52,754 nucleotides of DNA from an uncultured Gammaproteobacteria bacterium (GCA_947259875.1 CAMYNX010000010.1:1-52754), one strand, 5' to 3'; positions 8,404 through 44,996 are shown, numbered from the stretch's first letter. Numbers and translations are program-made. The notes: generated from the letters alone by a model not told the origin.

Positions 8404-9088
8404 GGTTGGTAATTGGACCCTTTGTTGGGCTGTCAACCCTTGTCTCGGCCTTGCCCTCGAACATAGGGCGTAAAATCACTAGATGACGAGTAGCGCCAAG
8501 GAGCGGAACTCGCAATGGTATGACATCAACCACCTCGATGGTGTTTATTGGCAGCTGATTGAGTTCGCGCTGCGGATCCCTGCCCTTCAGCGCCAATATC
8601 GTCCCGCCCGTCCGACACAGGTGGCCCGCCGCCGTCAGCAGTTTTGGCAGTGCTCCAAACGCACGTGCGACTAGCGTATCAAATTTCTTTTCGGGCCGGT
8701 ATTGCTCGGCCCGTTGGTGCACAATATCAACATTGCCCAGGCCGAGTACATTGACTGCCTGGATGAGAAACTGGATGCACTTGCGGCGGCTGTCCAACAG
8801 CGAAACCGAAATATCTGGGTGAGCGATCGCTAATGGGATTCCCGGCAATCCCGCGCCGGTGCCAACGTCGAGCACCCGTGAGCCGTGAAGATAGGGGGAA
8901 ATCACCAGGCTGTCCAATAAATGCCAGGGAACCATTGCCTGGGGGTCGCGAATGGCGGTCAGGTTGTAGCTACTATTCCATTGTTCAAGAAGGTCTAGGT
9001 ACTGAATAAGCTTGGCCTGGGACAGCTGGCCAAGATTAAGCCCGAGTGCCACCAGTCCGGTTTTTAGCGCCCCTTCCCTAGCCCGCAT
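8357..9088 (-). CDS. rsmG: 16S rRNA m7G527 methyltransferase RsmG
   Basis: HLLDSLVISPYL, VLDVGTGAGLPGIPLAI; upstream of parA. Confidence 0.96.
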   Translation of the reverse strand: MRAREGALKTGLVALGLNLGQLSQAKLIQYLDLLEQWNSSYNLTAIRDPQAMVPWHLLDSLVISPYLHGSRVLDVGTGAGLPGIPLAIAHPDISVSLLDSRRKCIQFLIQAVNVLGLGNVDIVHQRAEQYRPEKKFDTLVARAFGALPKLLTAAGHLCRTGGTILALKGRDPQRELNQLPINTIEVVDVIPLRVPLLGATRHLVILRPMFEGKAETRVDSPTKGPITNHGENRRSRQSKRWRG

Positions 9089-9140
9089 ATTGCACCAAGG
9101 ATCCCGGATGATGGCGCAGGACTCGGGTCGCGGCGCGTCT
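9077..9140 (-). repeat. Interspersed structured repeat, copy D (3' part)
   Basis: minus strand CATCATCCGGGATCCTTGGTGCAATATGCGGGCTAGG; contains rsmG start codon. Confidence 0.75.
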
Positions 9141-9171
9141 TACCGATACCGGCATCTGCAAACAGCGCCGG

Positions 9172-27184: not shown

Positions 27185-27220
27185 CGCTCTACGCAGATTC
27201 TATCACTGCTAGCGAAGGGT

Positions 27221-27304
27221 TAGCCCGCATGTTGCACTAACCCCCGCCCTGGCTCGGTCTAGGGCGCCTGGGTTTGTGCTTCACCCAACCCATAGCTTAT
27301 GTGG
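27221..27304 (+). repeat. Interspersed structured repeat, copy E (rearranged/partial)
   Basis: inverted tail TAGCCCGCATGTTGCAC joined to left half CCCTGGCTCGGT...CATAGCTTATG. Confidence 0.65.
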
Positions 27305-30667: not shown

Positions 30668-30798
30668 CCTGCGCGTGCGAATAAGATGGCCCGCGGGAAG
30701 AATTAATGGGCAGATCAAAAGCGGTTGTTTGAGAAGCCAGGTAAATCACGTTAGGCGTGCTCCGCGACTCACCCCGCCGCCGGTTTGGCCTTTGTTAA

Positions 30799-30941
30799 AG
30801 CCCCGGGATTGGCGCTTCCCGCGTGTGAGGCGTTCAGCCGCCCGACCCTGCGCTTGTCCCCGCACAGCAGCGCAACCCCGCGCAGCACAAGTCCCTTCGC
30901 CATCATCGGGGCTCCCTCGGGCAATATGCGGCTAGGTGCAA
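30799..30941 (+). repeat. Interspersed structured repeat, copy A (shortened)
   Basis: closing stem AGCCCCG 30799-30805 / CGGGGCT 30907-30913; CGACCCTGCGCTTGTCCCCGCACAGCA core; tail GGGCAATATGCGGCTAGG. Confidence 0.85.
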
Positions 30942-30956
30942 CGTGTGGCACGAGAA

Positions 30957-31520
30957 TCATGGCCGGCCAAGCTTTGCCGACGTATAACCCCACAGGATTC
31001 CCAGTAACAGCCCTGCAGTGTGCGCCATGTTGGCAATATTGCCGACGAGGCCGAGCCAACAGACGACAAACCATCCCAGCATCATAATAACAATGTGCTT
31101 ATGCAGTCCCATGCCGAAACGGGGATTGAATCGGCCCTGCATCCAAAAATATCCCAACAGGCCGAATACCACACCGGACATTCCGCCGAAAGCCGGGCCC
31201 TGATAAAAATATTGCGCGAGGTTAGAGGATACCCCCAGCCCCACCACCATGGTGGCAAGATCCAGCGCGCTCAATCGATTTTCCAGCGCCCCGCCGAGCT
31301 CCCATAGCCAGAGCATATTAAATACAATATGGATAACGCCGATATGTATGAGTACCGGTGTCAACAGGCGCCAGAATTGCCCGGATCTGATTTCCGGCAG
31401 CATAATATCCACGCGCTCGGAAATAAAAAACGGCCGTAACAAATCGATCTTTGCGCCGAATCCCGAGACCAAGGCCAGTATTACACACAGCACGATTAAC
31501 GAAGTGGTAAGTGGGGGCAA
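30957..31520 (-). CDS. Rhomboid-family intramembrane protease
   Basis: GMSGVVFGLLGYFW and MAHTAGLLLGILWGY catalytic motifs; start uncertain (TTG 31520 proposed); upstream ORF extension to 31763 is repeat B. Confidence 0.88.
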   Translation of the reverse strand: MPPLTTSLIVLCVILALVSGFGAKIDLLRPFFISERVDIMLPEIRSGQFWRLLTPVLIHIGVIHIVFNMLWLWELGGALENRLSALDLATMVVGLGVSSNLAQYFYQGPAFGGMSGVVFGLLGYFWMQGRFNPRFGMGLHKHIVIMMLGWFVVCWLGLVGNIANMAHTAGLLLGILWGYTSAKLGRP

Positions 31521-31549
31521 TCTCACGGGTCGTAACGGTGGCAGGCCTA

Positions 31550-31733
31550 GCCCGTATATTGCCCCAAGGATCCCGGCTGATGGCGACGGGACTTGTGCTG
31601 CGCGGAGTTCCCCTGCTGTGCGGGGACAAGCGCAGGGTCGGCTGGACGCCGCGCTGGAACGAAATGCATAGCTGTAGCTATGGGTTGAGTGAAGCGCAAG
31701 TGCAGGCGTTCGCGACCGGGCCAGCGCCGGGAT
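31550..31733 (-). repeat. Interspersed structured repeat, copy B
   Basis: closing stem ATCCCGGC 31570-31577 / GCCGGGAT 31726-31733; same core and tail as copies A and C in reverse orientation. Confidence 0.88.
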
Positions 31734-32077
31734 AGGCCCAGCTCCGGGCACGCAACGTGGCAATGAACATTTGTCGAATTCGTTATTTCAAACAACGTTA
31801 GCTCTTTTCTTTGCTGTCTTGGTGGAATATACGGGCACCAGGGTGAGGTTGACAGCAGCCAGCCGCTGCTCACCATGAATATATTTGTTGTAAACCAGCC
31901 ACGCTAGCAAAAACTCTTTCGAAAGCCAATAATCTTGATAATTGCTTGTTTATCTACGGCGCTAGCTTAAACTTCTTTTCGAGATCCGTTGTTGCTGATT
32001 TTTTATGGCCACGGTATGGCCTCGTGACGGGCCTTGGTGAATCGAGTAGAACATTTCGCTAGATAATTTAATCATAC

Positions 32078-33535
32078 ATGCTTTCACATACAGCGGTTTT
32101 TACACGGCTGGTTCGCGATCACATGGGGCCGGCACCGGTAACGGTACCGGTGGGCACGGCCTGTGAAGATGCGGTGCGCCGCATGCGTGACGCGAAGGCG
32201 GACAGCATCGTCGTTGTCGATGGGGACGGTACCCCGGTGGCGATCGTTACCGAACAGGATGTTGTTCGGCGGTTGACGTTTCGTATTCCGGGCGACACTC
32301 CCGTGGATCAAGTCATGACCGCGCCACTGCAGACTATCCGCGACGACGAGCTTCTGTTTCATGCAATTGCCCAGATGCGGCGTGGACGCCTGCGGCACAT
32401 GCCGGTGGTGGACGCACATGGCGGGGTCGTCGGGGGACTGCAGCTCCACCACGCCTTGGCGATGGCCGCGCAACAAATGGTCAGTCAGATTGACATCCTG
32501 ACCCACTCGAAGACTGTTGAGGGGATGAAGCATACCAAGCAGGCGCAAGTGGAAGTCGCCAAACAGCTCTGTCATGACGCGGTGCCGGCACCGGAAGTGC
32601 AAGCACTAATATCACGGATCAATATCGATCTGTACCGGCGCATAGTCGATCTATGCCTGCGCCAAATGGCAGAAGACGGTTGGGGTGAGCCGCCGGTGGA
32701 TTTCGAAGTCATCGTTATGGGTTCCGGAGGCCGCGGCGAAAGTTTCCTGTATCCGGATCAGGACAACGGCTTTATCTTAGAGGACTATCCCGATGATCAA
32801 CACAAGAACATCGATCCTTGGTTTATAGAGCTTGCAGAACGCATGACCGAAGCCCTGGATCAGGTTGGGTTCGACTACTGTCGCGGTAATGTGATGGCGA
32901 CCAACCCATTGTGGCGAAAAACAATATCGCAATGGCGTGACCAGATCCGTCGTTGGGTGGGCAAGGGTGCCGGCACGGTATTGCGGCTCGCAGACATTTT
33001 TTTCGACTTTGTCCCGGCGCACGGGAAGGGCACCTTAACCGCCCAGCTTCGCACGTTCGTGACCGACGCCGCGCGTCGCCCGTTCTTTTTACGTGAGATG
33101 TACAAGCAAAACGAAGGGCACGAAGTTGCACTCGGTCCGTTTAACCGCTTGTTGATCGACAAGTTAGACGGCCCCAATAAAGGGAAGCTGAATCTGAAAA
33201 TGACCGGCACCTTACCGTTGGTGGGAGCGGTGCGAATTGCCGCATTATTCAATGGTGTTGCGGTAACTTCAACTTTGGGACGTGTTGCCGAGCTGTACGA
33301 ACAAGGGGCGCTGTCTTCCGATGAGCAGGACTATCTTTCCGGCGCGTTCAGACATATCACTAACTTACTGTTTCGTCAGCAGTTACGGGACTATGAGACC
33401 GGAGTAAAAGTCGGTAACCACGTGGCGGTGGACGCGTTATCGAAACGTGAACGAGACATGCTGATAGACGGTTTCAGGGCCATCAAGGAATACCGCAACC
33501 GGTTGCGCACCGCGCTGACCGGCAATGTTTTTTAA
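32078..33535 (+). CDS. CBS-pair domain protein with DUF294/GlnD-like nucleotidyltransferase domain
   Basis: two CBS motifs (DSIVVVDGDGTPVAIVTEQDVVRRL; LRHMPVVDAHGGVVG) and VMGSGGRGESFLYPDQDNGFI. Confidence 0.92.
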   Translation: MLSHTAVFTRLVRDHMGPAPVTVPVGTACEDAVRRMRDAKADSIVVVDGDGTPVAIVTEQDVVRRLTFRIPGDTPVDQVMTAPLQTIRDDELLFHAIAQMRRGRLRHMPVVDAHGGVVGGLQLHHALAMAAQQMVSQIDILTHSKTVEGMKHTKQAQVEVAKQLCHDAVPAPEVQALISRINIDLYRRIVDLCLRQMAEDGWGEPPVDFEVIVMGSGGRGESFLYPDQDNGFILEDYPDDQHKNIDPWFIELAERMTEALDQVGFDYCRGNVMATNPLWRKTISQWRDQIRRWVGKGAGTVLRLADIFFDFVPAHGKGTLTAQLRTFVTDAARRPFFLREMYKQNEGHEVALGPFNRLLIDKLDGPNKGKLNLKMTGTLPLVGAVRIAALFNGVAVTSTLGRVAELYEQGALSSDEQDYLSGAFRHITNLLFRQQLRDYETGVKVGNHVAVDALSKRERDMLIDGFRAIKEYRNRLRTALTGNVF

Positions 33536-33818
33536 CCGCCTGGCAACAACCAATGTCAGCATTTCATGTGCGTCTCTATGCTTGGATCACGGGCCGCAAA
33601 TACTGTCAAAGACGCGCGCGAATCGTGACTTAAGTAGCAAAACCGTGACCCCAAGCAGGTCCACACCCTCTAGCCGATAACCAAATATCATCAAACATCC
33701 TGTTTTGCCCGGGCCTCGCGGGCCGTATACTTAGACCTTGGCGGCACGGCCGCCCGCTGAACAAACCCCGGTGCAAGCCGGATTCGTCACTTAAGCATTT
33801 GACCTAAGGAGAACGGCA

Positions 33819-34034
33819 ATGTCCGAACACTTCAGAGATTACCTTATAGCGCTAGCCGATGATCCCAGCTTGCTTGCGCGATACAAAGCCGACCCAAAGG
33901 ACACCCTTCGGGATGCGGCAATTAGCAACGAAGAACGGCACGCCCTGTTGAGTGGTGATGTAGACCAAATCAAGGCCTTCTTGCAGGGGCAAGACGTGCC
34001 GGAACGAGTAATCGAGCTGATTGCAAAACTTTAG
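33819..34034 (+). CDS. Small helical protein of unknown function
   Basis: 71 aa; YLIALADDPSLLARYKADPKDTLRDAAISNEERHALLSGD pattern; GGAG upstream of ATG. Confidence 0.75.
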   Translation: MSEHFRDYLIALADDPSLLARYKADPKDTLRDAAISNEERHALLSGDVDQIKAFLQGQDVPERVIELIAKL

Positions 34035-34236
34035 ACTGCCACTGCAACCCATTCCGTCACCGCACTGGCAGCGAAGGACGCTGGCGCTAACACTATATCG
34101 GTCTTTTATTTGGGAGGGTGGCTAAGCGTGGGATAATCAAGTCGGGAGTCGCCGCGAGTGTATTCGTTAACCACTCGCGAGTCTGGCTGGCTGCAACGTC
34201 AGGTGTCTCCGTGACCCGTAGACCCAGTTTTTGATT

Positions 34237-34623
34237 ATGTCTGAAGCCATAGGAAGAACGGTGCTGATCGTTGACGATGAGCCCAATATCGTTTTGTCGT
34301 TGGAGTTCCTGATGAAGAAGGCAGGATATTCGGTGGCAACCGCGGCCGATGGTGAAGATGCGCTGGAGCAGATCAAGCACGCCATACCCGATTTGGTGCT
34401 CCTCGACATCAACATTCCCAAGGGCAACGGTTACGAAGTTTGTCAAGCGATTCGCGCCAACCCTGACTGCAAAGAGGTACGGGTAGTGATGTTAACTGCC
34501 AAGGGCCGTGATATAGAGCGTGAGAAAGGGCTCGCGGTGGGAGCAGATGATTACATCACTAAGCCTTTTTCGACCCAAGAGGTGGTTGACCTAGTTCACC
34601 GTTTGCTCCGGCCCGACGCTTAA
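34237..34623 (+). CDS. Single-domain response regulator (CheY-like receiver)
   Basis: VLIVDDEPN, LVLLDINIP, VMLTAKGR, GADDYITKPF. Confidence 0.95.
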   Translation: MSEAIGRTVLIVDDEPNIVLSLEFLMKKAGYSVATAADGEDALEQIKHAIPDLVLLDINIPKGNGYEVCQAIRANPDCKEVRVVMLTAKGRDIEREKGLAVGADDYITKPFSTQEVVDLVHRLLRPDA

Positions 34624-34628
34624 GTCAG

Positions 34629-36731
34629 ATGACTGCACGCAGCAAGTTCTGGTTGCTGCTGGCCACACTCCTGGGCGTGCAACTAATCGTCTTGGTTTGG
34701 GGAGCCTGGTGGCTTGGAAGCCGACCGCAACAAAACATAGCAGCCACAGAAGTTTTTGTTGTGCTTGCCGGGCTCGGCATGGTGCTCGCCACCGCCTTGG
34801 TGGGCGCTTGGTTATTCCTGGATCATTCGTTGCTGCAGACATTGCGGGTACTGCGTCGTGGTGTGGGCATCATTACCCAAACCAACCCACAACACGAGCT
34901 GGAGATCCGCAGCCCCCACTTACTCGATGATCTCCCGGATGCCGTCCATCAGCTGGGTCTGGAGCTAGACCAAGTCAGGACAGAGGTCGCTCAGGCGCTG
35001 ATAAGCGGAGCCAAGCATGCCGAGGAGCAAAAATCTCGCTTGGAGGCGGTGCTGTGTGAGCTCACCGAGGGAGTCCTTGTATGCGACGCACGATGCCGCA
35101 TCATGTTGTACAACCCGGCTGCACAACGCATCCTTCGTAATCATGCGGCGCTGGGATTGGGCCGATCGCTACATGATGTGCTTACTCGCGAGCCGGTGGA
35201 GCACAGCCTTGAAGTGTTGTCGCGGGCCATGGATCAGAACCGGGATGCGAACGAGCCGGAAACCGAGTTCGTCTGTGCCACCGTTGACCAAGAGATATTG
35301 CTGCGCTGCCGGCTGCGTTTGCTGTCAGCGGATTTGGGAATTGAATCGGGTTTCGTCGTCGCCTTCGATGACGTCACCCGCCAAGTTCAGGCCATAGGGC
35401 AGCGCGATGATCTGCTGCGGAAAGTGCTGGAACAGAACCGGGGCTCATTGGCGAATATCCGCGCGGCGGCAGAAAACCTAGTGGCGCATCCGAATATGAA
35501 TGTTGAGACACGCGCCCGGTTTGAGCAAATCATTGCGTATGAAAGCGCGCGACTGAGCGAGCAACTGGATCAAGCCGGGGAGCGTACCCGAGCGCTGGTT
35601 GGAAACGAATGGCTAACGGGCGATTTGTACTCGGCGGATCTGTTAGGCGCCGTGGTACACCGGTTCAAGCGAGACGGTGATATAACGGTGGTAATGACAG
35701 GAGCGCCGTTGTGGCTGCACGGCGACAGTCATTCGCTCATGCTTCTGCTCGAACAATTGATACGTCGAATCCAGACAGTCAGCAACGTGCGGGAGTTTGA
35801 CGTGAACGTGCTGATGGGAGATCGCGGTGTCTATATCGATATCGTGTGGGAGGGCGAGCCTATCAGCGAGTCTGTACTCGCTAAGTGGTCGTCTGAACCG
35901 TTAATGCATGCGGTGGGCGCATTAACGGTCAGTGATGTGATCGACAGGCATGGTGGTCAAATCTGGAGTCAGCGCGCGCGTCGCCGCAACTACTCTCTGG
36001 TACGCGTGCCGGTGCCGGTATCAAGCAAACAATGGGAGCTTCCTCGGGAAAAACTGCCGCCGCGACCGGAGTTTTATGATTTCAGCCTGGCAGGCGAACC
36101 GTCGGACTTAGGGACGCTCGCCGAGCAACCGCTGGACCGTCTCAATTATGTGGTGTTCGACACCGAAACCACGGGCTTGAAACCGTCTGCCGGGGACGAG
36201 ATCGTGTCGATTGCCGGAGTTCGCATCGTCAGGAACCGGATCTTGACATCCGAGACGTTTGAACGGCTGGTGAACCCTAAACGAAACATACCTAAACGCT
36301 CCATCCGTTTCCACGGTATCACCGACGACATGGTCAAAGACAAACCGCCGATCGAAGTTGCCATACCGCAGTTTAAGGAGTTCGTTGGTGATGCCATTTT
36401 AGTGGCACACAATGGAGCGTTTGACATGAAATTTATCCAACTCAAGGAAGCAGAGACCGGATGCCGATTCGATAACCCGATGCTAGATACTTTGTTGCTG
36501 TCGGTGTTTCTGCATGATCACGTGGAAGACCATACCTTGGATGGAATCGCCAATCGACTCGGGGTAGAGATATCCGGCCGCCACACCGCGTTAGGTGATG
36601 CGCTGGTGACCGCAGAAATCTTTCTGCGCCTCTTGGACGTACTGATTGAGCACGGCGTGACTCGCCTGAGCGAGGCACTGGAAGCGTCTGAGCGGGTGGT
36701 CACAATTCGAACCGAACAAGCCCGCTTTTAG
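34629..36731 (+). CDS. Membrane PAS / degenerate histidine-kinase-like protein fused to DEDDh 3'-5' exonuclease
   Basis: N-terminal TMs, PAS-like CRIMLYNPAAQRIL, no phospho-His in DHp-like segment, C-terminal VVFDTETTGL...AHNGAFDMKF...HTALGDALVTAEIF. Confidence 0.9.
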   Translation: MTARSKFWLLLATLLGVQLIVLVWGAWWLGSRPQQNIAATEVFVVLAGLGMVLATALVGAWLFLDHSLLQTLRVLRRGVGIITQTNPQHELEIRSPHLLDDLPDAVHQLGLELDQVRTEVAQALISGAKHAEEQKSRLEAVLCELTEGVLVCDARCRIMLYNPAAQRILRNHAALGLGRSLHDVLTREPVEHSLEVLSRAMDQNRDANEPETEFVCATVDQEILLRCRLRLLSADLGIESGFVVAFDDVTRQVQAIGQRDDLLRKVLEQNRGSLANIRAAAENLVAHPNMNVETRARFEQIIAYESARLSEQLDQAGERTRALVGNEWLTGDLYSADLLGAVVHRFKRDGDITVVMTGAPLWLHGDSHSLMLLLEQLIRRIQTVSNVREFDVNVLMGDRGVYIDIVWEGEPISESVLAKWSSEPLMHAVGALTVSDVIDRHGGQIWSQRARRRNYSLVRVPVPVSSKQWELPREKLPPRPEFYDFSLAGEPSDLGTLAEQPLDRLNYVVFDTETTGLKPSAGDEIVSIAGVRIVRNRILTSETFERLVNPKRNIPKRSIRFHGITDDMVKDKPPIEVAIPQFKEFVGDAILVAHNGAFDMKFIQLKEAETGCRFDNPMLDTLLLSVFLHDHVEDHTLDGIANRLGVEISGRHTALGDALVTAEIFLRLLDVLIEHGVTRLSEALEASERVVTIRTEQARF

Positions 36732-36734
36732 ACG

Positions 36735-36971
36735 ATGCGCAACGGAGGACGACAGACTGACCGCATCATCACGCTGGTGATAGTGGCCGCGCTTGCTTTC
36801 AACTACCCGTTGCTGAGTCTGTTCGGATCGTCAACCCTGATCTTGGGTATACCGGTTTTATATCTGTACTTATTCGTAGCGTGGGCTGTGCTCATCGGTC
36901 TAATGCGTGCGGTAATGATAAACCCGGGACCGAAACGCCGAAAACGCGATCTATCTCAGCGGCGACAATAA
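36735..36971 (+). CDS. Small membrane protein, probable symporter partner
   Basis: two hydrophobic segments, 4-nt spacing to neighbours in operon. Confidence 0.8.
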   Translation: MRNGGRQTDRIITLVIVAALAFNYPLLSLFGSSTLILGIPVLYLYLFVAWAVLIGLMRAVMINPGPKRRKRDLSQRRQ

Positions 36972-36974
36972 GCG

Positions 36975-39740
36975 ATGCTAAAAGAATGGGTGATTCTGGC
37001 AGTGTCCTTGGGTTACCTCGCCCTGTTGTTCGGGGTTGCCTATTATGGTGACAAGCGCGCCGACATGGGGCGCTCTATCATCAGTAATCCGTACATCTAC
37101 ACCCTGTCAATAGCGGTTTATTGCACGGCTTGGACGTTTTACGGAAGTGTCGGGCGAGCCGCGAGCACCGGCGTTGGTTTCCTTCCTATTTACCTCGGAC
37201 CCACGCTCATGGTCGCCATGTGGTGGATTGTGTTGCGCAAGATTATACGTATCGCCAAGGTGCATCGCATCACGTCAATCGCTGATTTCATCGGTTCTCG
37301 TTATGGCAAAAGCGCCCTACTTGGCGGGCTGGTGTCGATTATTGCGGTGGTCGGCATCATGCCCTATATCTCGTTGCAGCTGAAGGCGGTGTCCACCAGT
37401 TTCAACGTCGTGCGACGTTATCCCGATCTGCCGGTACTTGAGCACACGACCGCGACGCCGTTGTGGAGCGACACCGCGCTTTACGTGGCATTGGTGATGG
37501 CGGTGTTCACAATACTGTTTGGGACTCGGCACATCGACGTGGCAGAACGTCATGAAGGCATGGTCGCCGCGATCGCTTTTGAATCCCTGGTAAAGCTATT
37601 GGCCTTTTTGTCGGTGGGAATATTCGTGACCTTTGGGGTTTTCGAGGGCCCCGGAGATCTGTTTGCGCGCGCTGCGGCTGATCCCGAGTTGGCCCGCTTG
37701 ATGAGCCTGGAAGGTGCTCCTGGTGGCGCCACCAGCTGGTTTTTGCTCACGTTTTTGTCGATGTTTGCCATCCTGTTCCTGCCCCGCCAGTTCCAGGTGG
37801 CGGTGATCGAGAACGTCAACGAAGAACATATCCGCAAAGCTGTTTGGTTGTTTCCGTTGTATCTGTTCGTTATCAACTTATTCGTGCTGCCAATCGCGTT
37901 TGGTGGTCTGCTGCACTTTCCGAACGGCGAAGTCGATCCCGATACGTTCGTGTTAACGATACCGATGGCCGAGCATCAAGAGGCGCTGGCGCTATTCGTA
38001 ATTCTAGGCGGATTGTCGGCGGCGACCGGCATGGTTATCGTCGCATTATCGACCATGGTGTGCAACGACGTGGTGATGCCGGTGTTGTTGCGTCTAAAGG
38101 CCCTGGGCCTCACGCAGCGGAGAGATCTGGGTGGCCTGTTGCTTGGAATTCGCCGCAGCGCGATTGTCGGGATTCTATTGCTCGGGTTCGTGTACTTTCG
38201 CCTCATCGGCGAGTCCTATGCCTTGGTCACCATCGGGCTGGTGTCGTTTGTGGCAGCGGCACAGTTCGCGCCGCCGATCCTGTTCGGGATCTACTGGCAG
38301 GGAGCGAGCCGCGCCGGCGCGCTTGTCGGCCTGACTGCCGGTTTCTGTGTATGGATCTACACGCTCATGTTGCCCGCCTTTGCCAAGTCCGGCTGGCTGT
38401 CCACGGTGTTTATCGAACACGGTCTATTCGGGCTGGAAATTTTAAAACCGTACCAACTGTTTGGACTGGAAGGCCTAGATACGATTTCCCACGCGGTGTT
38501 TTGGAGCCTGTTGTTTAACGCCGGTGGTTTGGTCGGGGTATCGTTGTTCTCGCGCCAGAGCCCCATAGAGAGGATGCAGGCGGCGTTCTTCGTCGATGTC
38601 TTTCGCCAGGCAATTCCCAGAGGCGAGACGTATTTTTGGCGTGGCGCGGCTACAGTGTCCGAGCTTTTCGACTTGTGCGCCAGGTTCCTCGGCCTATCCA
38701 GGGCAACCGAAATTTTTACCGGGTACGCGCGCGAGCAGGGGGTCAAGCTGGAAGACGAACTTCAAGCTGGTCCCCGGCTGGTAAATCTAGTGGAGCGCCA
38801 CTTGGCGGGGGTTATTGGTTCAGCCTCCGCGCGGGTCATGGTGTCGTCGACGGTGAAGGGCGAAGCGCTGAGTTTAGACGATGTCATGCAAATCTTGGAC
38901 GAGACTTCACAAATGGTTGAATACAGTCACCAACTGGAGCAGAAGTCGGTTGAGTTAGAGGCGGCCACAAAAGAGTTACGCGCCGCCAACGAACGTCTGC
39001 ACGAGTTGGATCGCTTGAAGGATGAGTTCGTGTTCACAATCAGTCACGAGCTTCGTACCCCACTGACATCAATCCGGGCGTTCTCGGAAATACTTCATGA
39101 TAATCCGAACCTGGACGTCAAGAAACGAGAAGAGTTTTTGGCGACTATGGTGAAGGAGACCGAGCGCTTGACGCGACTGGTCAACGAGTTATTAGACCTA
39201 GCGCGGATCGAAGCGGGCCGCATGGACTGGCGTATGGAGCAGCTGGACTTGCGCGAGTTGGTTCGAGACGCGGGGGCCGCTGTCGGACAATTATTCGAGG
39301 AGCGGAGAATTGCCCTGACCCAGGACTTCCCTAACCGGCCAATGATACTGGAGGGTGATCACGATCGGCTGATGCGGGTGTTGATCAACCTATTGTCCAA
39401 CGCCAACAAGTTTTGCCGGCCAAATACCGGACGTGTCGTGGTGCGGTTATCTGAGATGGCGCAACAGGGTTATCGATGCGAGGTCATCGACAATGGTCCT
39501 GGTATTCCAAGCGAACAATTGGAGCGGGTGTTTGAGCGCTTCCACCAAGTCAGCGATCCAGACAAAGGCAGACCCAAGGGTTCCGGCCTCGGGCTCACTA
39601 TTTGCCAACGCATCATCGAACACCATGGGGGACGAATTTGGGCGAGCAGCGTCATCGGAGAGGGAACCACAATGGCGTTCGAGCTTCCACGCGTGGCGGT
39701 CACGCTTAGCAACCAGACACAGCCTGAACAGGTCAGATAG
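36975..39740 (+). CDS. Sodium:solute symporter-histidine kinase fusion (CrbS/CbrA-like)
   Basis: N-terminal SSS-type TM region; FTISHELRTPLTSIRAFSEIL H-box; LINLLSNANKF, DNGPGIP, GSGLGLTIC. Confidence 0.94.
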   Translation: MLKEWVILAVSLGYLALLFGVAYYGDKRADMGRSIISNPYIYTLSIAVYCTAWTFYGSVGRAASTGVGFLPIYLGPTLMVAMWWIVLRKIIRIAKVHRITSIADFIGSRYGKSALLGGLVSIIAVVGIMPYISLQLKAVSTSFNVVRRYPDLPVLEHTTATPLWSDTALYVALVMAVFTILFGTRHIDVAERHEGMVAAIAFESLVKLLAFLSVGIFVTFGVFEGPGDLFARAAADPELARLMSLEGAPGGATSWFLLTFLSMFAILFLPRQFQVAVIENVNEEHIRKAVWLFPLYLFVINLFVLPIAFGGLLHFPNGEVDPDTFVLTIPMAEHQEALALFVILGGLSAATGMVIVALSTMVCNDVVMPVLLRLKALGLTQRRDLGGLLLGIRRSAIVGILLLGFVYFRLIGESYALVTIGLVSFVAAAQFAPPILFGIYWQGASRAGALVGLTAGFCVWIYTLMLPAFAKSGWLSTVFIEHGLFGLEILKPYQLFGLEGLDTISHAVFWSLLFNAGGLVGVSLFSRQSPIERMQAAFFVDVFRQAIPRGETYFWRGAATVSELFDLCARFLGLSRATEIFTGYAREQGVKLEDELQAGPRLVNLVERHLAGVIGSASARVMVSSTVKGEALSLDDVMQILDETSQMVEYSHQLEQKSVELEAATKELRAANERLHELDRLKDEFVFTISHELRTPLTSIRAFSEILHDNPNLDVKKREEFLATMVKETERLTRLVNELLDLARIEAGRMDWRMEQLDLRELVRDAGAAVGQLFEERRIALTQDFPNRPMILEGDHDRLMRVLINLLSNANKFCRPNTGRVVVRLSEMAQQGYRCEVIDNGPGIPSEQLERVFERFHQVSDPDKGRPKGSGLGLTICQRIIEHHGGRIWASSVIGEGTTMAFELPRVAVTLSNQTQPEQVR

Positions 39741-39779
39741 GGAACTTATAGCTCGGCGGCACAAGCTCCCAATCGAGCG

Positions 39780-40802
39780 CTACGACCACTCTAACGGCGC
39801 CTCGTCCATCAACGCAGCCTGCTCGCGCAGCGAGAGGATATGATCCTCCCAGCACCGCTGGGTATTGAACCATGGGAATGCTCGCGGAAATGCCGGATCG
39901 TTCCAACGCTTCGCCAGCCACGCGTGATAGTGCAGGAGGCGCAGTGTGCGCAGCGCCTCGACCAAATGCAGCTGACGTGCGTCAAAGTCGTTGAATTGGG
40001 TATAACCGTCCAACAACTCATCTAAACGCGCAGTTTGGTAAGCACGATCGCCGGACAAGAACATCCACAGGTCTTGGATCGCGGGACCGGTTCTGGCGTC
40101 ATCCAGGTCAACGATGTGAGGCCCTTTTTCGCCCCACAATATGTTCCCGCTATGGCAGTCGCCATGTAAGCGCAGACTACCGACGTCCCCAGCACGGTCG
40201 AAACAATAACCAACGCGTTGTAAGACATCCTCGGCAATAGACCGATAGGGTGTTTCGAGCTCCGGCGGAAGGAATCCTTTCTCCAGCAGGTAACGGTAGG
40301 CGTGGGTACCGAAAGATTCGATCGTCAACGTCGGGCGGTGCGCGAACCCGCGCACCGCGCCGACCACGTGAATGCGTCCCAGAAAGCGGCCGAGCTGTTT
40401 CAGGTGTGCCGGGTTGTCCAGTTCCGGTGCACGGCCGCCATGCCGGGGAAACAGCGCAAAGCGGAACAAGCCCTGATAATGCAGCGTCTCGCCCGAATCC
40501 AACCGCCACGGCGGGACCACTGGGATTTCCGCCGCCGCCAACTCCCAGGCGAAGTCATGTTCTTCGTGGATCGCGGCATCCGTCCAGCGATGGGGGCGAT
40601 AGAATTTCGCGATCAGTGGCGGGGCGTCTTCCAGCCCCACTTGATACACGCGGTTTTCGTAGCTGTTGAGCGCTAATAATCGTCCGTCACAGTGGAAACC
40701 AACGCTCTCTACGGCGTCCAAGATCTGTTCCGGCCGCAAGCCTTGATAGGCGCGGGCCTCGCCGCTTTTATCGATAATTTCGTGTGTGGCCGACTCAGGC
40801 AT
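39780..40802 (-). CDS. srkA: Stress response kinase A (YihE/RdoA family)
   Basis: YENRVYQVGLEDAPPLIAKFYRPHRWTDAAIHEEHDF; RLHGDCHSGNILW, HIVDLDDARTGPAIQDLWM. Confidence 0.94.
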   Translation of the reverse strand: MPESATHEIIDKSGEARAYQGLRPEQILDAVESVGFHCDGRLLALNSYENRVYQVGLEDAPPLIAKFYRPHRWTDAAIHEEHDFAWELAAAEIPVVPPWRLDSGETLHYQGLFRFALFPRHGGRAPELDNPAHLKQLGRFLGRIHVVGAVRGFAHRPTLTIESFGTHAYRYLLEKGFLPPELETPYRSIAEDVLQRVGYCFDRAGDVGSLRLHGDCHSGNILWGEKGPHIVDLDDARTGPAIQDLWMFLSGDRAYQTARLDELLDGYTQFNDFDARQLHLVEALRTLRLLHYHAWLAKRWNDPAFPRAFPWFNTQRCWEDHILSLREQAALMDEAPLEWS

Positions 40803-40916
40803 TAACCGACCTTAGCGCAGCCAAAAGAAAATTTGTAGCGATGATTTCTTGCCCCGACACCGCGTGAGCTATGATTGCCCGCCCCAATCAACTCCGAACC
40901 AAGCGTTATTTCAAAG

Positions 40917-43232
40917 ATGGCGACGAAACAAGACCTAGAAGCGCGAGAATCAGACTGCACGAGCACCGATGACTTCCTGGCATTGGCCAACGAGGCATTG
41001 AGCGAACCGGCAGATAAAGAATACGCCAAGCACCTGTTGCAGCAGGCTGAGATGCAATGCCAGTTTCCAACGCAGTACGTCGATGTGGCGAGGGGTTTTG
41101 CCGACGGACTGGGGGACCAAGATTATGCCAAGGACTTGTTGGACCAAGCCCAAGAGGCGTGCTTTGAGGGCAAGGAATTCGCAGCAGTAGGCCATGCCTT
41201 CGCAACCCTGATCGGCGATTCCGAAACCGGCAAGGCGCTGCTCGCGCAGGCCGTGGAGGAGGCGAAGGGACTGGATGAGATCATGGAACTGGCACACAAG
41301 GCCGAGCAGATTGATGCCGAGTTGGCAAAATCGCTGCTCACCAAGGTGGAAGCCGAATGCAAGGATTTTGAGACGCTGCGAAAACTCGCCGCTCGTATGG
41401 CAGGCAGCGACGCGACAGCCGCTAAAGAGATCTACAAGAAAGCGGACCGGTTTTGCGGTGACATGGAAACAACCGTGGAATACGCGCGCGGCGCCAAAGA
41501 GATCTTCGCCGATGACAATTGGGCTGGCGAGATCCTGGAAGCGGCGGAGTCTGATTGTCAATTTCCCAATGAATTCGTCGCCCTGGCCCGCGGCTTCAAG
41601 GAGATCCTTGGGAGAGACGACAAGGTCGATGATTTGCTCGAACAAGGCGCGGAATTCGCGATGTCCGGACCGGAACACCTAGACCTTGCGCGTGGATATT
41701 GGGAGCTGAAAAACGACGCGGCGCGGGCGGCCCAAGCCTATCAACAGGCACTGCCCGAGATCACCGATCGGACGCAGCTGCTGGCATTGGCAAAGACGGT
41801 CGGCGCAGAACTAGGCGACCAGGAACTCGCCAAACAGATCTATGCCAAGGTGGAACAGAAAACTACGGTGGCAGGCGACTTTGTGAAACTGGCCCAGGAG
41901 ATCGCGGAGAATTTGCGCGACCAGGTATACGCCTCCGAGGTATATCAGCGTGCGGAAGAAAAGATGTCCGGTGTCCACGACTTGATCAACCTCGCTGGCG
42001 CCGTGCTCGGCAACTTGGATGATCGAGGACGTGCCGTCGATATCTACCAGAAGGCGTTGGAAAAAGCCGATGACTTTACCGGTTTAACTAAGTTATTGGA
42101 TGCGGTACAGACGAGTGTCGAGGATGATGCGCTGATTCGTGGGGTATTTGACAAACTTGCCAGTACCGCGGATGCGACCAGTGAGTTGCTGGGTTTGCAC
42201 CTACGAGCGACGGAGCTGTTGCGCGACAAAGAGTTACCGACTCGTATGTTGCAACTCGCGGAAGAATGCGTCACCAGCCTGGACGAAATGCGCAAGGTAG
42301 CGGAAGCAGTCACTAGCCACGCCGCCAACGATCAGGAGTGGGTAGCGCGGGTCACCGAAAAACTGCACAAGCGAGAGGCCAACCAGGCAACATATGCACA
42401 GATCCAAAAGCAAGAAGAGGAGTGCTCTGCCGCCAAACAGTTGCTTCACCTGGCGGATCAGGTCATCACCGAGCTAGAAGACAAGTTCTACGCCCGTAAG
42501 TTGATCAGTAAGGCTGAAGAAATGTTACAGAAGGAGACTTTTGACTTCAGCAAGTATCAAGCGCTGATCACCAGCATCGATAAGAATCTGCAGGACCAGC
42601 AATGGGCCGAACAACTGTACCGCGACTGCATCGAGCGCTGCCGCCATTTTGCCTGTGTGCAACAGATCGCGCAATCGGCGGTGAGCACCCTGACAGATAG
42701 TGAATTGGCACACCGCCTGGCGCGAGAATTCTATCAGGCCGAACAACAAAAGCTTGGCGATAAATCGTTTGCCGACACTCTGAAGCTAGCGGATGCCATT
42801 TTGCGTGATCTTGATGACCACACTTGGGCACAAGACCTATTGGGCAAAGCGGAGCTGTCCGTGGAAGACCATTTCGATCTCGCCTGTGCGGCGCAATTCG
42901 CGGCCCGGCTTGACGACAACGCGAGGGCGGAATCGCTCTATCAGCAAGCGGCGGACCATTGCGGTTCCGCGGAGGACCTGTTGCAACTGGCAACACGTAT
43001 GCAGCGAGACCAGGTCGATGAGCAAACTGTGAAAGACGTCTATCGCTCGGCAGGCGCAACATTGTCAGCGCCGGGCGACCGGCTCAAGTGGGCGGAGGGC
43101 ATTATCACCCTATTCGCCGACCGTGAATGGGCACGCCAAGCTTACGACGATCTCAAAGATTCTTTCACCGACGAACGCCAGCGGGCGGTCTACAGCGCGA
43201 GCCGCCAACACCGGCTCGAGCGGCGATTGTGA
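40917..43232 (+). CDS. Tandem ~34-aa helical-repeat (TPR/Sel1-like) solenoid protein of unknown function
   Basis: about 21 repeats of pattern [E]xxCxxxxxFxxLAxxxxxxLxDxxxAxxLLxKA; no signal peptide seen. Confidence 0.85.
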   Translation: MATKQDLEARESDCTSTDDFLALANEALSEPADKEYAKHLLQQAEMQCQFPTQYVDVARGFADGLGDQDYAKDLLDQAQEACFEGKEFAAVGHAFATLIGDSETGKALLAQAVEEAKGLDEIMELAHKAEQIDAELAKSLLTKVEAECKDFETLRKLAARMAGSDATAAKEIYKKADRFCGDMETTVEYARGAKEIFADDNWAGEILEAAESDCQFPNEFVALARGFKEILGRDDKVDDLLEQGAEFAMSGPEHLDLARGYWELKNDAARAAQAYQQALPEITDRTQLLALAKTVGAELGDQELAKQIYAKVEQKTTVAGDFVKLAQEIAENLRDQVYASEVYQRAEEKMSGVHDLINLAGAVLGNLDDRGRAVDIYQKALEKADDFTGLTKLLDAVQTSVEDDALIRGVFDKLASTADATSELLGLHLRATELLRDKELPTRMLQLAEECVTSLDEMRKVAEAVTSHAANDQEWVARVTEKLHKREANQATYAQIQKQEEECSAAKQLLHLADQVITELEDKFYARKLISKAEEMLQKETFDFSKYQALITSIDKNLQDQQWAEQLYRDCIERCRHFACVQQIAQSAVSTLTDSELAHRLAREFYQAEQQKLGDKSFADTLKLADAILRDLDDHTWAQDLLGKAELSVEDHFDLACAAQFAARLDDNARAESLYQQAADHCGSAEDLLQLATRMQRDQVDEQTVKDVYRSAGATLSAPGDRLKWAEGIITLFADREWARQAYDDLKDSFTDERQRAVYSASRQHRLERRL

Positions 43233-43250
43233 ACCGCAAGCTAAGTTTTT

Positions 43251-43703
43251 TTAGTTGACGATCCGCCAAGAGCCATCGGGTTGCCGGCACGCCGTACCAT
43301 AGGCCTTTTCCCGGTTGCGGCCGACAATGATGTCGGTTTGAAACTCGCGGCAATATTCACCCGATGATCTTTGGTAGGTCTGGGTGGGGGTTATGGTGAC
43401 TTGACTTCCCTCGTCGGGATTGACCCAGCGGGTGGATTCGCCGACACGGTTGTACTCCAGCACATGTTGCGCATGCAATTCATCGACGCGGTCCAAGGAA
43501 CGACCGATTTCCTGGCCAACCAGCGCCCCGAGCACTGCACCAACGAAGGTCGCGGCGATCTGCCCGCTGCCGTCACCGATGGTGGAGCCCAGCACACCGC
43601 CGGCCACCGCACCGGTGGCCGTGCCCGCCTCTTCTTTGGTCATGGCACAGCCGCCAACGACCATGGTGCCTGCCAACACCACACCAATAAATTGTTTGTA
43701 CAT
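43251..43703 (-). CDS. Glycine-zipper 2TM outer-membrane lipoprotein
   Basis: lipobox VGGC; GTATGAVAGGVLGSTIGDGSGQIAATFVGAVLGALVGQEIGRSLD. Confidence 0.9.
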   Translation of the reverse strand: MYKQFIGVVLAGTMVVGGCAMTKEEAGTATGAVAGGVLGSTIGDGSGQIAATFVGAVLGALVGQEIGRSLDRVDELHAQHVLEYNRVGESTRWVNPDEGSQVTITPTQTYQRSSGEYCREFQTDIIVGRNREKAYGTACRQPDGSWRIVN

Positions 43704-43896
43704 TGACGTTCTTCCCGTATGGTTGTTCTATAAATAACGATAAACTGTCGCCCCGGGATGACACGCGAGCGCGGTAAAGCGCGCGCGTTGCTTGACAATT
43801 ACGAACCATCGCTGGGTAGCAGCCGCGATAAACCAAGGGGTCGCCAATTGCCCCGGCCTGCACATCGCCGTTCAATGTAGACATGCAACAAAAGAC

Positions 43897-43934
43897 GGAT
43901 AACCCGGATATTGCGCCAAGGCGCCCGGTGACTA
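43897..43934 (-). repeat. Interspersed structured repeat, copy F (tail fragment)
   Basis: TAACCCGGATATTGCGCCAAGGCGCCCGGTGAC region resembles the inverted tail of copies A-D. Confidence 0.5.
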
Positions 43935-44028
43935 TTCATAGCGCCCGGCTAACAGCTTCGCAGTGTCACTTAGATAAAATGGCAACATACGAGTCTCCAG
44001 GTTATCTGAAGAGAATAGTCGCGGGGCT

Positions 44029-44236
44029 ATTCCGGCCCTGGCTCAGTGGCGAACGCCCGGGCTTACGCCTCACGCAACGCATCGCTACGGCTATGCGTTT
44101 CGCTCCAGCGCGGCGCTTGTCCCCGCCAGCAGGGGAACCCGACCCTGCGCTTGTCCCCGCACAGCAAGGGAACTCCGCGCAGCACGAGTCCCCTCGTCAT
44201 CATCCGGAATTCTCGGTGCAATATGCGGGTTAAGCA
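44029..44236 (+). repeat. Interspersed structured repeat, copy C (with internal duplication)
   Basis: closing stem ATTCCGG 44029-44035 / CCGGAAT 44204-44210; GCGCTTGTCCCCGCCAGCAGGGGAAC and GCGCTTGTCCCCGCACAGCAAGGGAAC; tail TGCAATATGCGGGTTAAG. Confidence 0.88.
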
Positions 44237-44996
44237 CGCATCGAGAGCGCCGCATCTGGTTGCCCACCGCGGCGTTCCGGCATCAATGCCAGGAAACACC
44301 CTCATCGGTTTTGAGGCCGCGCTGCAAGCCGGTGCACGGTATTTGGAGCTGGATATCCAGCTCACCGCTGACGGTGTACCGGTGCTGTATCATGATGACA
44401 ATACACTGCGCATGTCCGGCATCGCCGGTGGTCTGCTGACGCGCTCGCTCGCAGAGGTCAAGAAGCTGCGCGCGTCGTTCCCGTCGCGTTTTGGGGATCA
44501 CTTCAAGGACAATCCGATCGCGTCGCTGTTCGAATTTTGCGAATTATTGGCCGTGTGGCCCAAGGTCACCGTCTTTGTAGAGTTGAAACGCGCCAGCCTG
44601 AATCATTTCGGGCGCGCAAACATGGTTGATGCGGTGGTAAAGATATTGAGTGCCTTTCGTAACCAGGCGGTGTGCATTTCCTTTGATGCTGCCGCGATAG
44701 AATATGCGCAATCGACCCACGGGGCGAGCATCGGTTGGGTACTGCCGGAATGGAGCGCCGAAAACCAGGCTCGGGCCGAGGCGTTGGCGCCCCACTTTTT
44801 ATTCTGCGACATGGACATCCTTCCCCAAGACGATCACCACATCTGGCGTGGGCCCTGGCAATGGGCAGTCTATGTCGTCGACGACCCGGACCAGGCCCTG
44901 GCATTATTCAAGCGTGGTATCGATCTGGTGGAGACCGACCGCATCGTCGATATGCTGCGACATCCGCTGTTGGCGGAGCGCGCACACCATGGATAG
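44223..44996 (+). CDS. Glycerophosphodiester phosphodiesterase
   Basis: LVAHRGVPASMPGNTLIGFEAALQAGARYLELDIQLTADGVPVLYHDD; start codon lies in repeat C tail. Confidence 0.94.
   Translation: MRVKHASRAPHLVAHRGVPASMPGNTLIGFEAALQAGARYLELDIQLTADGVPVLYHDDNTLRMSGIAGGLLTRSLAEVKKLRASFPSRFGDHFKDNPIASLFEFCELLAVWPKVTVFVELKRASLNHFGRANMVDAVVKILSAFRNQAVCISFDAAAIEYAQSTHGASIGWVLPEWSAENQARAEALAPHFLFCDMDILPQDDHHIWRGPWQWAVYVVDDPDQALALFKRGIDLVETDRIVDMLRHPLLAERAHHG

What the first reader, a model, noticed from the sequence alone, without database searches (positions are those of the whole stretch)
30799..44236. Interspersed structured repeat family with covarying closing stems (copies A, B, C)
Seen directly: three dispersed copies share the core CGACCCTGCGCTTGTCCCCGCACAGCA(R)GGGAACTCCGCGCAGCAC(A/G)AGTCCC and a tail. 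Each is closed by a stem whose sequence differs between copies while complementarity is kept: A AGCCCCG(30799-30805)/CGGGGCT(30907-30913); B ATCCCGGC(31570-31577)/GCCGGGAT(31726-31733); C ATTCCGG(44029-44035)/CCGGAAT(44204-44210). Internal hairpins also look conserved (B CATAGCT-AC-AGCTATG; E CATA-GCT-TATG; B TCCCC-GCACAGCA-GGGGA; GCGCGG...CCGCGC nested stem). Inference: selection on folded structure, either a mobile MITE/REP-type element or a structured RNA.
Basis: partly seen in the sequence, partly recalled or inferred. Interest (0 to 1): 0.78.

Follow-up and report, generated by a model that had tools for sequence, protein, structure and literature searches.

The report
Folded mobile repeat moved by IS1380
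The scattered repeats are copies of a small, gene-free jumping DNA element, present in over a hundred copies and apparently moved by a cut-and-paste enzyme of the IS1380 family, whose inner hairpin has kept its shape across distantly related bacteria while its letters changed, which suggests that the folded form itself matters.

Summary
In detail: the sequences and stems lie exactly where stated. A, B and C, plus relics near 9.08 kb and 27.22 kb, belong to one MITE-like family. Its own genome (4.6 Mb, 390 contigs) holds 306 terminal repeats at up to 3 mismatches (0 in reversed-pattern controls). Elements are mostly 250-340 bp, with ~19-bp terminal inverted repeats CCCGCATATTGCACCAAGG and 4-bp YTAR target duplications. 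Relatives G004 and G005 show clean empty sites for C, and G005 for B. Autonomous elements with matching ends in relatives encode IS1380-family transposases; no such gene was found in this draft genome. The left half folds into a ~131-nt hairpin. Within this genome covariation is not significant. Across lineages it is: 39 of 45 pairs change on both sides, 88.7% of cells pair (shuffled 72.5%), and the three strongest covarying column pairs of the alignment are structural pairs. A covariance model finds it in 19 of 109 genomes of the order, in five families. The right half is an exchangeable module that occurs in both orientations when bounded by its own inverted repeats. Conserved folding is supported; whether it acts as RNA or DNA is unresolved, and expression is untested.

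The parts
43899..44233 (-). Copy C: complete element (body 43903-44229) with target duplications ATAA 43899-43902 (decayed) and TTAA 44230-44233. Left part is module 3 (hairpin type i, about 43921-44027); right part is the long-hairpin core, read on the - strand
   Evidence: empty orthologous sites with a single CTAA in relatives G004 and G005; covariance model hit E 1.3e-10
31547..31839 (+). Copy B: complete element (body 31551-31835), target duplication CTAG 31547-31550, right end decayed; core on the + strand, module 3 of type ii
   Evidence: empty orthologous site in G005, shorter copy in G004; covariance model hit E 4.4e-19
30703..30935 (-). Copy A: decayed element whose left terminal repeat is lost; right target duplication CTAG 30932-30935
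   Evidence: the G002 orthologue keeps the left end TTAACCCGTATATTG at the matching position; covariance model only E 0.23
9078..9156 (+). Copy D: relic with an intact left end CTAG-CCCGCATATTGCACCAAGGATCCCGG and a decayed core; right limit uncertain
   Evidence: covariance model hit 9093-9156, E 1.9e-4
27220..27297 (-). Copy E: relic with left end TTAG-CCCGCATGTTGCAC and part of the core; right limit uncertain
   Evidence: (inverted repeat I4)
43921..44027 (+). Module 3 of copy C, bounded by its own inverted repeats; occurs in both orientations in other copies
44029..44210 (-). Core hairpin domain of copy C (closing stem ATTCCGG/CCGGAAT), expanded by tandem GCTTGTCCCCGCACAGCAGGGG units
31570..31733 (+). 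Core hairpin domain of copy B (closing stem ATCCCGGC/GCCGGGAT; apical hairpin CATAGCTGTAGCTATG)

Best explanation
This is a high-copy, non-autonomous transposable element (a MITE) that an IS1380-family transposase, supplied in trans, recognises by its 19-bp ends and inserts at YTAR sites, mostly between genes. Its interior is modular. One module is a long hairpin of about 131 nt with a conserved tip (CATAGCCGTAGCTATG), whose fold, more than its letters, has been kept across the order. The second is an exchangeable right-hand module that can sit in either orientation when it has inverted-repeat ends. Shown: ends, duplications, empty sites, matching autonomous IS1380 elements in relatives, fold conservation. 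Inferred: that IS1380 transposase does the moving; that the fold is kept by selection (for example on element stability, transposition, or as a transcript) and not by a mutational process alone; and that module flips and swaps arise through the inverted-repeat arms (template switching or recombination).
For: 306 ends at up to 3 mismatches, none in controls; 84 paired elements. YTAR duplication matches in 28 of 83 against 14.2 expected, and in 16 of 31 against 7.3 for the best-preserved; recent G007 copies mostly show CTAG on both sides. Empty sites. Three identical-length 1790-bp IS1380 elements in G040 with closely matching ends and YTAR duplications, and one in same-genus G001. Insertion is mostly intergenic: 8 of 76 fall inside a long ORF against 100 of 175 control positions. 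Fold: and 71 double Watson-Crick replacements on the tree. Order-wide model hits. Module 3 inverted in 10 of 30 hairpin-bounded copies but 0 of 31 others, p 0.0003, and confirmed for type i.
Against: No IS1380 gene was found in G000, G002 or G007, which have the most copies; these are incomplete drafts in which repeated IS copies are easily lost. Only 2-4 base pairs are individually significant against the phylogenetic null. The five most distant sequences were aligned by the model itself, which favours the structure. The structure was derived from one of the sequences, which inflates the cells-paired measure.
Confidence: 0.85

Rival explanations
1. The core is a structured non-coding RNA gene (or cis-acting RNA) that has been captured and spread by IS1380 ends; its transcript is the functional form.
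For: Strong covariation with fixed internal loops and a fixed tip position, 76-77 nt from the end in the short forms of every lineage sampled. The predicted fold is more stable on the core strand (-72 against about -53 kcal/mol), because some consensus pairs are G-U.
Against: No Rfam match even at E 1. Changes from Watson-Crick pairs to G-T and to A-C are about equally frequent (34 against 26 events, p 0.37), so no strand preference expected of an RNA is seen. Copies insert without a fixed gene context.
Confidence: 0.15
2. The paired arms stay complementary only by a mutational process: template switching inside the palindrome copies changes from one arm to the other, with no selection on the fold.
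For: Tips and modules have been swapped and flipped in ways expected of template switching; quasipalindrome correction makes double changes at once, and double changes are common.
Against: Correction should turn the hairpin into a perfect palindrome, but internal loops and mismatched positions are kept at the same places across lineages.
Confidence: 0.25
3. The mobiliser is a different DDE family with a YTAR target, such as IS701.
For: From memory, YTAR duplications are also given for IS701; no IS1380 gene is in the draft genome.
Against: No IS701-family transposase in this genome; matching ends with YTAR duplications were found directly around IS1380 transposases in relatives.
Confidence: 0.05

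Closest known systems
IS1380-family insertion sequences (PF13701, NF033539)
   Same: Nearly the same terminal repeats and YTAR 4-bp target duplications; autonomous copies of 1.6-1.8 kb in relatives G001 and G040 (2 mismatches in 20 positions at the best ends), and a second end type (TTTCTCACC) in G005 and G006 matching a second class of these MITEs
   Different: The window element has no transposase gene and its interior is not a shortened copy of the IS coding region
RUP of Streptococcus pneumoniae (MITE moved by IS630-Spn1) and Correia/NEMIS of Neisseria (PMC2229807)
   Same: Small, non-coding, intergenic, about 100 or more copies, terminal repeats, foldable transcripts; RUP proposed to be mobilised in trans by a resident IS
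   Different: These use TA targets and are under 200 bp; here the target is YTAR, the element is 250-340 bp and modular, and the fold covaries across several bacterial families
ERIC and QMITE elements (PMC2229807, PMC10969869)
   Same: Intergenic, strongly folded, high copy number
   Different: Different ends and target sites; no IS1380 link
REP/REPIN palindromes with TnpA-REP
   Same: Dispersed palindromic repeats
   Different: REPs have no DDE-type terminal repeats and no target duplication; the only REP-like feature here is a terminator-like hairpin that replaces the tip in some copies

Membership tests
MITE | Short, no transposase gene, many dispersed copies | tested here: met
   Mostly 250-340 bp, 306 ends in 4.6 Mb
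MITE | Terminal inverted repeats | tested here: met
   19-bp near-perfect ends, column frequencies 0.87-0.99 at most positions
MITE | Target site duplication and empty orthologous sites | tested here: met
   YTAR, 28 of 83 against 14.2 expected; empty sites in G004 and G005
IS1380-mobilised elements | Ends shared with an autonomous element encoding an IS1380 transposase | tested here: met
   G040, three copies, and G001
IS1380-mobilised elements | Autonomous partner in the same genome | tested here: not met
   No PF13701 match in G000, 91% complete, 390 contigs
IS1380-mobilised elements | Mobilisation by the transposase shown | not testable with these tools
   Needs a laboratory transposition assay
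IS701-mobilised elements | IS701 transposase with the same ends | tested here: not met
   No NF033540 match in G000; relatives not searched
Structured RNA family | Covariation above a phylogenetic null | tested here: met
   4 of 45 pairs at E<0.05; top pairs E 0.02 and 0.04 against all column pairs; not within the own genome alone
Structured RNA family | Match to a known Rfam family | tested here: not met
   None
Structured RNA family | Strand preference of G-U changes | tested here: inconclusive
   34 against 26 events, p 0.37
Structured RNA family | Transcribed and processed | not testable with these tools
   No RNA-seq available
REP/REPIN | Short palindromes without DDE-type terminal repeats | tested here: not met
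   Elements have 19-bp terminal repeats and YTAR duplications

The most novel reading that the evidence does not exclude
An IS1380-borne element carries an ancient structured RNA (or folded DNA) module with a conserved tip, spread through an order of Gammaproteobacteria, whose fold is selected for a specific function, while its flanking hairpin module acts as an invertible, exchangeable cassette.
Probability: 0.2. Interest if true: 0.75.

Novelty: new variant of a known kind. Interest (0 to 1): 0.55.

Why it matters
MITEs are usually seen as short-lived, lineage-specific debris. Here one architecture (ends, tip position, long hairpin) persists across at least five families of an order, with compensatory changes in nearly every base pair, so its fold is either selected or maintained by a specific mutational process; both are testable. 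It also gives IS1380, for which no MITE turned up in the papers searched, a high-copy non-autonomous partner, and shows hairpin-bounded modules being swapped and inverted inside a mobile element.

Tried and rejected
IS701 as mobiliser (no hit in this genome). TA-only target duplication, as in IS630 elements: k=2 matches equal expectation, while k=4 at YTAR exceeds it. Stand-alone copies of the ~100-nt core: hits that looked solitary were inside ordinary elements once the flanks of the 14 sampled were read. Stand-alone copies of module 3: 17 of 18 type-i matches in the genome have an element end at the expected distance on at least one side; one (L316) has none by the scan used, although its flank reads GGGCTAG. 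Rfam and plasmid records gave nothing. RNAalifold gave no structure on the gappy own-genome alignment, so a named structure and a separate phylogenetic null were used. The G-U against A-C strand test was inconclusive.

Full report
CHECK. Copies A, B and C are 84-89% identical over 90-97 nt, B in the opposite orientation. A search of the window's own genome (G000, 4.59 Mb in 390 contigs) with copy C gave 49 matches, with only 40 of 238 candidates scored. No Rfam family matches, even at E 1.

ENDS AND TARGET. Extending the copies outward gave paired terminal inverted repeats, TARCCCGCATATTGCACCAAGG and its complement. The genome has 306 such ends at up to 3 mismatches, none in the reversed-pattern control. 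From the fetched regions 84 distinct paired elements were taken; the main group is 250-340 bp, with shorter deletion forms of 71-230 bp and longer forms up to 574 bp. The flanking tetranucleotide is YTAR (CTAG, TTAG, TTAA, CTAA). The left and right tetranucleotides agree in 28 of 83 elements against 14.2 expected after shuffling, and in 16 of 31 of the best-preserved against 7.3. A burst of near-identical elements in G007 (mean identity 94%) mostly shows CTAG on both sides.

EMPTY SITES. For copy C, relatives G004 and G005 carry the flanking genes with a single CTAA and no element; G002 has an element at the same place lacking module 3. For copy B, G005 has an empty site and G004 a shorter copy. 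For copy A, G002 keeps the left terminal repeat which the window copy has lost. Elements are rarely inside genes: after removal of the element, 8 of 76 junctions lie in a long ORF, against 100 of 175 control positions.

MOBILISER. In G040, a one-contig genome of the same order, three pairs of the same ends lie 1790 bp apart. Each encloses one 475-aa protein (488-aa open frame) that matches DDE_Tnp_1_4 (E 6e-152) and the NCBI model transpos_IS1380 (E 6e-117). Its duplications are TTAG, CTAG and CTAG. A same-genus IS1380 element in G001 has matching ends (L172). IS1380 elements in G005 and G006 have a second end type (TTTCTCACC or close to it, L174 and L175), which is also found on MITEs with the same core in G001, G008 and G012. 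G000 itself has no IS1380 gene and no IS701 gene. Given an incomplete draft this is not decisive, but it means the partner in this genome is inferred.

DISTRIBUTION. Ends are abundant in all same-genus genomes except one low-completeness bin, and in parts of the same family. Titled public records with the element are uncultured Gammaproteobacteria MAGs. A covariance model of the core finds it in 19 of 109 genomes of the order, spanning five families (f1, f4, f6, f8, f10). In the window it finds B (E 4e-19), C (1e-10), D (2e-4) and weakly A (0.23).

ANATOMY. In core orientation an element reads: end; closing stem ATCCCGG; a variable number of hairpin units such as TTCCCCTGCTGTGCGGGGACAAGCGC; the long hairpin with tip CATAGCCGTAGCTATG; closing stem CCGGGAT; module 3; end. 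In short forms the tip is 76-77 nt from the end in the lineages sampled, including G017, whose stem letters are largely different. In about nine copies the tip is replaced by a different hairpin with A- and T-runs, GGGGTCGGAGTC...GACTCCGACCCC.

MODULE 3. Four types were seen. Types i and iii, which resemble each other in reverse orientation and have their own inverted-repeat ends, occur in both orientations relative to the core (20 and 10). Types ii and iv occur in one orientation only (0 of 31 inverted; Fisher p 0.0003). A direct search with the type i module gave 18 matches. In about nine the module lies next to the left end with the core to its right, and in about six it is inverted next to the right end; one inverted copy (L320) sits in an element whose core is of type iv. 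Orientation and pairing of modules are therefore mixed. The route (template switching or recombination through the arms) is inference.

COVARIATION. Own-genome copies alone: no pair significant against a tree-based null that redistributes substitutions, although 74-97% of cells pair per helix. Forty cross-lineage short forms: 2-3 pairs with E<0.05. Twenty-four sequences aligned without structure: 87.2% of cells pair against 78.8% shuffled and at most 40% when slid; 18 pairs changed on both sides. Thirty-one sequences including five distant hits: 88.7% against 72.5%; 39 of 45 pairs changed on both sides, 195 double-changed cells against 53 shuffled. Against the tree-based null, 4 of 45 pairs are significant and the three highest-scoring column pairs of the whole alignment are structural (all-pairs E 0.02, 0.04, 0.2); the mean score is 10.8 for the structure and at most 1.3 when slid. 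Caveat: this last alignment was fitted by the model. The null is a home-made version of the R-scape idea, not R-scape itself.

RNA OR DNA. If the fold acted as RNA from one strand, G-U intermediates should outnumber A-C ones. They do so only slightly (34 against 26 events, p 0.37). The core strand folds more stably (about -72 against -53), but this partly reflects how the structure was chosen. The question stays open.

KNOWN WORK. Bacterial MITEs such as RUP and Correia/NEMIS are small, intergenic, foldable and proposed to be IS-mobilised (PMC2229807). The 2024 review of prokaryotic MITEs does not mention IS1380 (PMC10969869). Searches for IS1380 with MITE terms found no IS1380-derived MITE family in the open library; subscription papers and ISfinder were not searched, so novelty is provisional. 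The YTAR target of IS701 is from memory.

VERDICT. A new MITE family with IS1380 ends: strongly supported. Order-wide conserved fold: supported. Function of the fold: unknown; selection on element biology is the leading idea, with a mutational explanation and an RNA function as live rivals.

Noticed in passing
L062, L072, L080, L088, L103, L105, L111, L115, L127 (own genome): The conserved tip of the core hairpin is replaced by a terminator-like hairpin (A-run, GGGGTCGGAGTC...GACTCCGACCCC, T-run) at the same place; possibly a REP-type palindrome inserted at hairpin tips.
   Followed up: partly
L054:1496-1990: A ~490-bp copy carries, in the tip of its core hairpin, an insert with ends TTCTGTTGAAAAACTC, apparently a different MITE.
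   Followed up: no
L298 (G004:C52:25700-26550): One element is inserted into a CTAG just after the tip of another element of the family, a nested insertion.
   Followed up: partly
L296, L297, L335, L336, L337, L342: Elements with the same core but a second end type (TTTCTCACC), matching IS1380 copies in G005 and G006, as if the core had changed ends to follow a different transposase.
   Followed up: partly
window 31547-31763 and 44046-44232: The mechanical ORFs of the rhomboid gene (30957-31763, -) and the GDPD gene (44046-44996, +) begin in or just beyond copies B and C, so the elements lie directly upstream of, or at, these gene starts.
   Followed up: partly
L166, L133 (G015): Other MITEs of 137-207 bp with near-identical ends (TAGCCTGCATATTGCACCAG) but an interior unrelated by eye.
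   Followed up: no
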